This document shows positions 27,077 through 27,684 of a DNA stretch of 64,000 nucleotides, piece after piece; position 1 is the stretch's first letter, and the number at the start of each line of letters is the position of its first letter. The stretch comes from Verrucomicrobiota bacterium (GTDB lineage Bacteria > Verrucomicrobiota > Verrucomicrobiia > Opitutales > Puniceicoccaceae), in contig JBCDMB010000001.1 of the NCBI GenBank assembly GCA_038744685.1, positions 248,001 to 312,000 on the forward strand. Direction: 5' to 3'. The position numbers were made by a program, and so were the translations under genes. The notes below the pieces were generated by a model. That model ran no database searches and was not told the DNA's origin. It saw only the letters and a list, made by a program, of their open reading frames with translations.

Positions 27077-27130
27077 TGCCCAGTAGCTTAGCGGTAGAGT
27101 CCCGAAGACTTTCGGGATTGATCACTGAGC
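27077..27130 (+). pseudogene. Broken tRNA-Asn copy 1, interrupted by an 18-nt hairpin
   Basis: Positions 27077-27099 copy the 5' half of the intact tRNA-Asn at 27241 (acceptor strand and D-arm, one base different). The anticodon stem region is then replaced by TCCCGAAGACTTTCGGGA at 27100-27117, a hairpin with 7-bp arms. After it TTGATCACT restarts the 3' half of the anticodon arm, but the T-arm and acceptor 3' strand are missing. It cannot fold as a tRNA. Confidence 0.75.
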
Positions 27131-27162
27131 AGGAAGGCATTTTTGACAGTGACTTTGAAAAA

Positions 27163-27214
27163 CCCGGCAGCTCAGCGGTAGAGTCCCGAAGACTTTCGGG
27201 ATTAATCACTGAGC
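27163..27214 (+). pseudogene. Broken tRNA-Asn copy 2 with the same hairpin
   Basis: Same architecture as copy 1. The D-arm sequence lies at 27163-27183, the identical hairpin TCCCGAAGACTTTCGGGA at 27184-27201, and TTAATCACTGAGC at 27202-27214. T-arm and acceptor 3' strand are missing. The 32 bases between copies 1 and 2 show no match to a tRNA. Confidence 0.75.
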
Positions 27215-27240
27215 CTTAGACAATTTCCGTAACCATTTCA

Positions 27241-27315
27241 TGCCCAGTAGCTCAGCGGTAGAGCAGGTGACTGTTAATCACTTTGTCGTAGGTTCGATCC
27301 CTACCTGGGCAGCCA
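27241..27315 (+). tRNA. tRNA-Asn (GTT)
   Basis: A complete cloverleaf. Acceptor strands TGCCCAG (27241-27247) and CTGGGCA pair, the D-arm is GCTC...GAGC, and the anticodon loop CTGTTAA at 27271-27277 carries GTT at 27273-27275. The T-arm GTAGG-TTCGATC-CCTAC is perfect. The discriminator G at 27312 is followed by an encoded CCA at 27313-27315. It is followed 7 bases later by a strong hairpin with a T-run. Confidence 0.96.
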
Positions 27316-27322
27316 CTTTAGA

Positions 27323-27347
27323 CCCTTCCTAAAAGAAGGGTTTTTTT
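27323..27347 (+). terminator. Rho-independent terminator of the tRNA, overlapping the next ribosome site
   Basis: Arms CCCTTC (27323-27328) and GAAGGG (27335-27340) with a six-base loop are followed by seven T (27341-27347). The very next bases are the ATG of the GIY-YIG gene. The 3' arm AAGGG is therefore also positioned as its Shine-Dalgarno sequence, so this hairpin may hide the ribosome site of any read-through transcript. Confidence 0.85.
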
Positions 27348-27605
27348 ATGCCCATGTTTCACGTCTACATTCTCGAAAATCCCGCCGGTAGGTTTTACAT
27401 CGGCCAAACCTCGGACCTGAAAGCTCGAATCGCCGACCACAACAGAACTGACGAAATCGAAGGGAAGTTCACTCGAAAAAACGGGCCGTGGAAGCTGATC
27501 TGGTCTGAGGAGCATCCAGACCGTAGGTCGGCAATGAGACGGGAGAGGGAGATCAAGTCTTGGAGATCCTCCGCGATGATCCGTCGAAAACTACTCTCAA
27601 AGTAG
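27348..27605 (+). CDS. Single-domain GIY-YIG nuclease
   Basis: An 85-residue protein made only of the GIY-YIG catalytic domain (UvrC/SLX1-like). HVYILENPAGRFYIGQTSDL holds the VYI...YIG pair, with Arg in DLKARIADHNR, and the later ARMRRERE-like helix (SAMRREREIKSW, Glu being the metal ligand candidate) and KLIWSEEHPDRRSA are as in small YhbQ-type proteins. ATG 27348 directly follows the terminator T-run and ATG 27354 is an alternative. It lies downstream of tRNA-Asn, and a decayed copy of the same unit lies at 34398-34668. The role is unknown, possibly DNA repair or a selfish nuclease. Confidence 0.9.
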   Translation: MPMFHVYILENPAGRFYIGQTSDLKARIADHNRTDEIEGKFTRKNGPWKLIWSEEHPDRRSAMRREREIKSWRSSAMIRRKLLSK

Positions 27606-27684
27606 CTCGGAGGCCCAGTCCCGAAAGCTTTCGGGATTAATCACTTTGTCATATTCCGCTTTCTCGGGACTACCTGTGCACCCA
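27602..27684 (+). pseudogene. Broken tRNA-Asn copy 3 overlapping the GIY-YIG stop
   Basis: GTAGCTC at 27603-27609, which contains the GIY-YIG stop codon TAG, and CCCAG at 27615-27619 recall the tRNA 5' half. A perfect 18-bp palindrome TCCCGAAAGCTTTCGGGA follows at 27620-27637, then TTAATCACTTTGTC (27638-27651), identical to the 3' half of the tRNA anticodon arm. CTACCTGTGCACCCA at 27670-27684 matches the tRNA 3' end with a few changes. T-loop sequence is lost. Confidence 0.65.

What the first reader, a model, noticed from the sequence alone, without database searches (positions are those of the whole stretch)
27077..27684. Three broken tRNA-Asn copies all interrupted at the anticodon stem by the same palindrome
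Two copies upstream (27077, 27163) and one downstream (27602) of the intact tRNA-Asn carry the D-arm, then an 18-nt hairpin (TCCCGAAGACTTTCGGGA or, in copy 3, the perfect TCCCGAAAGCTTTCGGGA) exactly where the 5' anticodon stem should be, then TTAATCACT or TTGATCACT from the other side. Three events at one point suggest either a mobile palindrome with a preference for this tRNA site, repeated unequal duplication of one event, or a tRNA-derived regulatory or att element. The copies cannot work as tRNA because the T-arm is gone.
Basis: seen in the sequence. Interest (0 to 1): 0.62.

Follow-up and report, generated by a model that had tools for sequence, protein, structure and literature searches.

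The report
Hairpin-ended nuclease element in tRNA genes
The broken tRNA copies are scars of a small selfish DNA element, carrying a GIY-YIG DNA-cutting enzyme gene, that inserts into the anticodon part of tRNA genes in many bacterial phyla while leaving or supplying an intact tRNA; I found no earlier description of it in the open-access papers I could search.

Summary
In detail: three tRNA-Asn fragments (27077-27126, 27163-27210, 27601-27684) carry TCCCGAA..TTCGGGA palindromes in place of tRNA positions 25-34, beside an intact single-copy tRNA-Asn, and such near-perfect palindromes occur nowhere else in the genome. Of its 80 nearest relatives in 84,980 species genomes, 48 lie within 165 nt downstream of a tRNA (Asn, Val, Ala, Pro, Leu and others; several phyla), mostly followed by a pseudo-tRNA whose anticodon arm is replaced by the same TCCCG-n-CGGGA hairpin. 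The palindrome's seven pairs covary, with almost no G-U pairs, so it is kept as DNA. In Patescibacteria, TCCCG/CGGGA are the ends of an insert that splits a native tRNA-Cys between anticodon bases 34 and 35 and carries a complete substitute tRNA-Cys; a sibling insert carries the GIY-YIG gene. The window locus is thus a cluster of full and decayed copies of a tRNA-targeting, host-gene-sparing GIY-YIG element. The anatomy is shown; the cut-and-repair (homing) mechanism is inferred. Closest known: fungal mitochondrial endonuclease elements that regenerate atp6/atp9/cox2 ends.

The parts
27077..27099 (+). tRNA-Asn 5' half (positions 1-24), copy 1
   Evidence: 96% identical to intact tRNA bases 1-23; sequence
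27100..27117 (+). palindrome 1, TCCCGAAGACTTTCGGGA (element ends back to back)
27118..27126 (+). tRNA remnant TTGATCACT resuming at anticodon base 35, then lost
27163..27183 (+). tRNA-Asn 5' half, copy 2
27184..27201 (+). palindrome 2, identical to palindrome 1
27202..27210 (+). tRNA remnant TTAATCACT (from base 35)
27241..27315 (+). intact tRNA-Asn(GTT), the only one in the genome
   Evidence: ARAGORN, Rfam RF00005 E 9.6e-15, whole-genome search
27322..27347 (+). terminator-like hairpin + T-run between tRNA and nuclease gene
   Evidence: sequence; similar unit in L016, L018
27348..27605 (+). GIY-YIG nuclease gene, 85 aa
   Evidence: Pfam PF01541 E 4.7e-18; profile of its family matches UPF0213 structures and SLX1
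27601..27618 (+). decayed tRNA-Asn 5' fragment (about positions 7-24) overlapping the ORF stop, copy 3
   Evidence: 14 of 18 bases match the intact tRNA by eye; conserved arrangement in relatives
27619..27636 (+). palindrome 3, perfect TCCCGAAAGCTTTCGGGA
27637..27684 (+). tRNA-Asn 3' half remnant to CCA, T-arm replaced by decayed second hairpin (27654-27669)
   Evidence: same second hairpin in L015, L016, L062, L067
34433..34670 (+). decayed second GIY-YIG copy with internal stops (69% identity over 35 aa)

Best explanation
The locus is a cluster of one complete and several decayed copies of a small mobile element whose ends are TCCCG...CGGGA and which is associated with a GIY-YIG endonuclease. 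It inserts at the anticodon arm of tRNA genes (and sometimes in other conserved genes) and leaves the host with an intact gene, because the element carries the missing part of the tRNA or a whole substitute. Shown: anatomy, tRNA association, covarying DNA-level palindrome, empty versus occupied sites, and, in Patescibacteria, a native tRNA split at 34/35 around a TCCCG/CGGGA-bounded insert with a substitute tRNA. Inferred: the GIY-YIG enzyme cuts the anticodon-arm DNA of element-free tRNA genes and repair copies the element in (homing); short palindromes left in pseudo-tRNAs are internally deleted copies (ends only) that also remove the cut site; hairpin extrusion of the ends is recognised by the enzyme, a relative of the structure-specific nuclease SLX1.
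For: 48 of 80 protein-selected GIY-YIG relatives lie within 165 nt downstream of a same-strand tRNA, where a few tenths of a percent would be expected from typical tRNA density (my estimate). Pseudo-tRNAs found without asking for TCCCG nearly all carry TCCCG..CGGGA or compensated TTCCG..CGGAA / CTCCG..CGGAG. Palindromes: 490/504 Watson-Crick pairs against a shuffled maximum of 424; G-U 2, A-C 6, against 16 and 1 in real anticodon stems (Fisher p 0.001). The same tRNA-Val locus in Pedobacter (30 loci read): 8 with GIY-YIG, 4 with solo pseudo copies, 1 with a truncated remnant, 17 with neither. Empty tRNA-Asn site in G042 against the tandem element in its congener G070/L014. L228: native tRNA-Cys halves ..TCTG|TCCCGATT...AATCGGGA|CAAAAC.. 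around an intact different tRNA-Cys; L198 a similar split with GIY-YIG; the joined halves of L198 match uninterrupted tRNA-Cys genes of relatives at 82-85%. Protein-gene cases L086 (tpiA) and L128 (FemAB-like). On the tree the tRNA type changes 17 times, against 49 in shuffles and 23 for phylum.
Against: No transposition or cleavage has been observed. In most tRNA loci the GIY-YIG gene lies outside the palindrome, not between its arms. The intact tRNA next to the element should still be cuttable unless the site extends beyond it. The junctions differ between tRNA types (25-34, 27-43, 39-46), so insertion must often involve loss or replacement of target bases. In L198 and L214 the outermost hairpins are not of the TCCCG type. 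In Pedobacter L156 the 3'-half-plus-terminator repeats are nearly identical, which fits local duplication or gene conversion as well as import. Tree support is weak (82 columns), and tRNA type and phylum are partly confounded.
Confidence: 0.68

Rival explanations
1. REP/RAYT-like system: the palindromes are non-autonomous single-strand-DNA hairpins spread by the GIY-YIG protein acting as a hairpin-specific transposase, and tRNA anticodon arms are targets because they too form hairpins in single-stranded DNA.
For: Arm length fixed at 7 bp, spacer variable (2-7 nt), strict Watson-Crick pairing; ends flank the GIY-YIG gene in L086, L128, L131 and, with other sequences, L207, L208; other GIY-YIG homologues sit between intergenic inverted repeats (L096, L110, L116, L118, L132); SLX1 kinship.
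Against: Palindromes are not dispersed: only this locus in the window genome; among 18 loci fetched from other hosts many are ordinary terminators and only one or two are clear pseudo-tRNAs. Target duplications of 80-100 bp and regenerated genes point to recombination repair.
Confidence: 0.2
2. Ordinary tandem duplication and decay of a tRNA gene, with chance hairpins and an incidental GIY-YIG gene.
For: Tandem arrays with about 80-90-nt spacing occur (L045, L097, L103, L152).
Against: The same hairpin sequence replaces the anticodon arm in many tRNA types and several phyla next to the same gene family; compensatory changes; split tRNA-Cys with substitute.
Confidence: 0.03
3. The pseudo-tRNAs are functional RNAs (decoy, regulator, or RNA antitoxin to a tRNA-cutting GIY-YIG toxin).
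For: Some pseudo-tRNAs keep acceptor, D and T arms and score as tRNA (L090, L097); copies lie in tRNA transcription units.
Against: G-U pairs nearly absent, unlike RNA stems; most copies lack the acceptor 5' strand or the T-arm; insertions in protein genes; no pseudo-tRNA family beyond tRNA in Rfam.
Confidence: 0.06
4. RNA-guided nuclease: a transcript of hairpin plus flanking tRNA sequence guides the GIY-YIG protein to tRNA genes.
For: Conserved hairpin next to sequence identical to the target, beside a nuclease gene.
Against: DNA-type pairing constraint; an 85-aa protein with only a GIY-YIG domain; no conserved RNA beyond the hairpin.
Confidence: 0.03

Closest known systems
Fungal mitochondrial mORF elements (Allomyces atp6; Glomus atp6, atp9, cox2, nad3; PMC3630166)
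   Same: An endonuclease gene (LAGLIDADG, or GIY-YIG in atp9) inserts near the end of an essential gene, supplies a substitute end so the gene stays whole, and leaves the native end as a downstream remnant.
   Different: Here in bacterial chromosomes, mostly at tRNA anticodon arms, a free-standing protein of about 85 aa, and conserved TCCCG/CGGGA hairpins at the junctions; substitutes can be a tRNA half or a whole tRNA.
Free-standing GIY-YIG homing endonucleases of phage T4 (Seg family, SegB near tRNA genes; PMC2988022, PMC13096335 seen as search hits; details from memory)
   Same: GIY-YIG nuclease linked to tRNA genes.
   Different: No pseudo-tRNA remnant or conserved hairpin known to me; phage-borne.
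REP elements and RAYT (TnpA-REP) transposases (PMC8266576 and others)
   Same: Short palindromes associated with a single nuclease gene, probably acting as DNA hairpins.
   Different: RAYTs are HUH/Y1 enzymes; here GIY-YIG, few copies, bound to tRNA genes.
UPF0213 / SLX1 GIY-YIG proteins (PDB 1zg2, 1ywl, 7cq2)
   Same: Closest solved sequence relatives.
   Different: SLX1 is a repair nuclease; no mobile-element link known to me.
Group I introns in tRNA anticodon loops (PMC3984707)
   Same: Anticodon-loop target, often with a homing endonuclease.
   Different: No intron: the host tRNA gene is duplicated or substituted, not spliced.

Membership tests
GIY-YIG nuclease superfamily | GIY-YIG domain with conserved active-site residues | tested here: met
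   PF01541 E 4.7e-18; Y7, Y17, G19, R27, H31, N32, E54, E66 invariant in 8 relatives
Gene-regenerating endonuclease element (mORF type) | native remnant on one side, intact substituted gene on the other, endonuclease gene linked | tested here: met
   L198 tRNA-Cys, L086 tpiA and L128 FemAB-like, L051 tRNA-Asn
Gene-regenerating endonuclease element (mORF type) | substituted part is foreign relative to the native remnant | tested here: inconclusive
   Clear in L198, L228 and L128; in Pedobacter L156 the two copies are nearly identical
Homing endonuclease element | nuclease cuts the empty target allele | not testable with these tools
   needs biochemistry
Homing endonuclease element | empty and occupied orthologous sites | tested here: met
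   Pedobacter tRNA-Val locus; G042 against G070
REP/RAYT | HUH/Y1 transposase and many dispersed palindromes | tested here: not met
   nuclease is GIY-YIG; palindrome confined to this locus in the window genome
Group I intron | ribozyme core splicing the tRNA | tested here: not met
   only tRNA reaches Rfam's cut-off at the window locus
tRNA-site integrative element (tyrosine integrase) | integrase gene at the tRNA | tested here: not met
   seven neighbouring genes scanned with Pfam show no integrase; not every ORF was scanned
Structured RNA (regulatory or antitoxin RNA) | RNA-type covariation with G-U pairs | tested here: not met
   G-U 2, A-C 6 in 504 pairs, against 16 and 1 in 260 real anticodon-stem pairs

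The most novel reading that the evidence does not exclude
A new class of bacterial transposable element: TCCCG/CGGGA hairpin ends are recognised as single-stranded DNA or cruciform by a very small GIY-YIG nuclease, which inserts the element at anticodon arms of tRNA genes and other hairpin-forming or conserved gene sites, with the substitute host gene carried inside; other palindromic intergenic repeats flanking GIY-YIG genes would be its sister families.
Probability: 0.3. Interest if true: 0.9.

Novelty: new variant of a known kind. Interest (0 to 1): 0.78.

Why it matters
It would explain a widespread class of hairpin-armed pseudo-tRNAs, some of which tRNA finders call as genuine tRNAs (for example tRNA-Ile(tat) and tRNA-Cys(gca) in L090 and L084), and give a role to a common group of small GIY-YIG proteins of unknown function. 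It is a bacterial case of a selfish element that carries a copy of the essential gene it damages, and its target, the anticodon loop of tRNA genes, is highly conserved, which would allow spread across phyla. The GIY-YIG genes flanked by abundant intergenic inverted repeats suggest that the same logic may underlie other bacterial palindromic repeats.

Tried and rejected
Rfam: only tRNA reaches threshold for these units. Dispersed-repeat idea: palindromes elsewhere in other hosts include ordinary terminators (TCCCG..CGGGA followed by T-runs) and few pseudo-tRNAs. T-stem type of tRNA-Asn as a marker of an imported 3' half: it varies among genomes with and without the element, uninformative. Phylum-wide pattern searches found 7 of 289 genomes for the Asn type, three of them chance hits in coding or unrelated sequence, and 1 of 289 for the other type. 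G002 as an empty site on the 5' side failed because of an N stretch in the array. Literature searches found no description of GIY-YIG genes with hairpin-armed pseudo-tRNAs; the library holds open-access papers only, no bioRxiv. PADLOC gave only marginal hits for the nuclease. Structure prediction was not run: sequence search already placed the protein.

Full report
CHECK. The three fragments are present at the stated places. The palindrome is far above chance in the window and confined to this locus in the genome. It replaces tRNA positions 25-34, and the tRNA sequence resumes at anticodon base 35. Copies 1 and 2 keep the full 5' half; copy 3 keeps a decayed 5' fragment and the 3' half to the CCA end, with a second hairpin in place of the T-arm. 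The intact tRNA-Asn (27241-27315) is the only full match in the genome.

Between the intact tRNA and copy 3 lies an 85-aa GIY-YIG nuclease gene (27348-27605; PF01541 E 4.7e-18). Its nearest homologues in the order (L014, L015, L016, L018, L019, L020) all sit downstream of tRNA-Asn. In L014 and L016 the unit [tRNA 3' half - GIY-YIG - tRNA 5' fragment - hairpin] is tandemly repeated. The hairpin differs between species but keeps TCCCG...CGGGA and its place in the tRNA.

GENERALITY. A protein-based scan of 84,980 species genomes, not chosen for tRNAs or hairpins, gave 80 loci. In 48 a tRNA on the same strand ends 1-163 nt upstream (in a few of these, such as L084, L090, L095, L097 and L115, the 'tRNA' is itself a hairpin-armed copy). 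The tRNA is Asn in Verrucomicrobiota, Planctomycetota and Desulfobacterota, Val in Bacteroidota, Ala in Acidobacteriota and Chloroflexota, also Pro, Leu and Met. The palindrome downstream replaces exactly positions 27-43 in Val, Ala and Leu copies, 25-34 in most Asn copies and 39-46 in a second Asn type. A search that did not ask for TCCCG found the same hairpin in nearly every pseudo-tRNA.

DNA RATHER THAN RNA. In 72 distinct arms (71 palindromes plus one real anticodon arm that passed the filter) 490 of 504 pairs are Watson-Crick (shuffled mean 407, maximum 424). Pairs 6 and 7 vary with compensation (136/144, shuffled mean 75), pair 8 is unconstrained, and the spacer varies. G-U pairs number 2 and A-C 6, against 16 and 1 in real anticodon stems (p 0.001). 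Sequences are related, so the p value is indicative only. The palindrome thus behaves as DNA recognised in both strands or as a DNA hairpin. The nuclease profile's nearest solved structures are UPF0213 proteins and the structure-specific nuclease SLX1.

MOBILITY. At one syntenic tRNA-Val locus in Pedobacter, of 30 loci 8 hold the GIY-YIG gene, 4 only solo hairpin pseudo-tRNAs, 1 a truncated remnant (L155) and 17 neither. L180 carries TTCCG..CGGAA in all its palindromes, a compensated change. G042 is an empty tRNA-Asn site beside the tandem element of its congener G070/L014. On the protein tree, tRNA type clusters (17 changes, shuffled 49) somewhat better than phylum (23 changes), with weak branch support.

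HOW IT SITS IN ITS TARGET. The clearest cases are Patescibacteria. In L198 a native tRNA-Cys is split between bases 34 and 35 (TCTG|CAAAAC); between the halves lie hairpins (not of the TCCCG type), the GIY-YIG gene, a complete different tRNA-Cys, and a 5'-fragment-plus-hairpin. The joined halves match uninterrupted tRNA-Cys genes of relatives (82-85%). In L228 the insert has no GIY-YIG gene and is bounded exactly by TCCCGATT...AATCGGGA, again at 34/35, again with a complete substitute tRNA-Cys. L214 is a third example with GIY-YIG. Two insertions lie in protein genes: L086 in tpiA and L128 in a FemAB-like gene (named from the sequence), with a truncated native gene start before the element and a differently coded start of the whole gene after it. 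These show TCCCG/CGGGA as element ends; the short palindromes in pseudo-tRNAs are then best read as ends-only relics.

READING OF THE WINDOW (inferred). Copies 1 and 2 are upstream ends-only relics with native-type 5' halves; the intact tRNA-Asn followed by GIY-YIG and copy 3 is the current unit, copy 3 being the 3' remnant.

MECHANISM (inferred). Most likely homing: the enzyme cuts an element-free tRNA gene in the anticodon arm and repair copies the element, which supplies the missing tRNA part; the hairpin both marks the element end and removes the cut site. A hairpin-recognising, transposase-like mode is the main rival. Unresolved: why the intact neighbouring tRNA is not cut, why junctions differ between tRNA types, and why the gene usually lies outside the palindrome.

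KNOWN KINDS. The logic matches fungal mitochondrial mORF elements (PMC3630166). I found no report of a bacterial or tRNA version in the library searched.

Noticed in passing
window 34433-34670: A decayed second GIY-YIG copy lies about 7 kb downstream in the same orientation; the stretch between the two copies holds a TOTE-type primase-helicase and a RelB-like antitoxin gene.
   Followed up: partly
L009, L012, L029, L034, L038, L039, L041: A second GIY-YIG type sits directly after the CCA end of Met, Leu, Ala, Ser and Lys tRNAs with CCTTCG-type inverted repeats, without TCCCG pseudo-tRNAs.
   Followed up: no
L096, L098, L101, L110, L113, L116, L118, L123, L129, L132: GIY-YIG homologues not near tRNAs form one clade spanning many phyla; several are flanked by intergenic inverted repeats such as CGTCATTCCGAGC...; these genes may drive those repeats.
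   Followed up: partly
L207, L208: GIY-YIG genes inside inverted repeats; in L208 (14-bp CCCGCACATAAACG) the insertion is at the start of a recR-like gene with a GATGGATC direct repeat.
   Followed up: no
G404 and G405 (Patescibacteria, 0.8 Mb): 6 and 10 GIY-YIG copies per tiny genome, many beside tRNAs.
   Followed up: partly
L007, L031: GIY-YIG homologues just downstream of tmRNA genes.
   Followed up: no
L084, L090, L095, L097, L115: Hairpin-armed pseudo-tRNAs are called as real tRNAs (Cys, Ile, Val) by ARAGORN, a likely source of annotation errors.
   Followed up: partly
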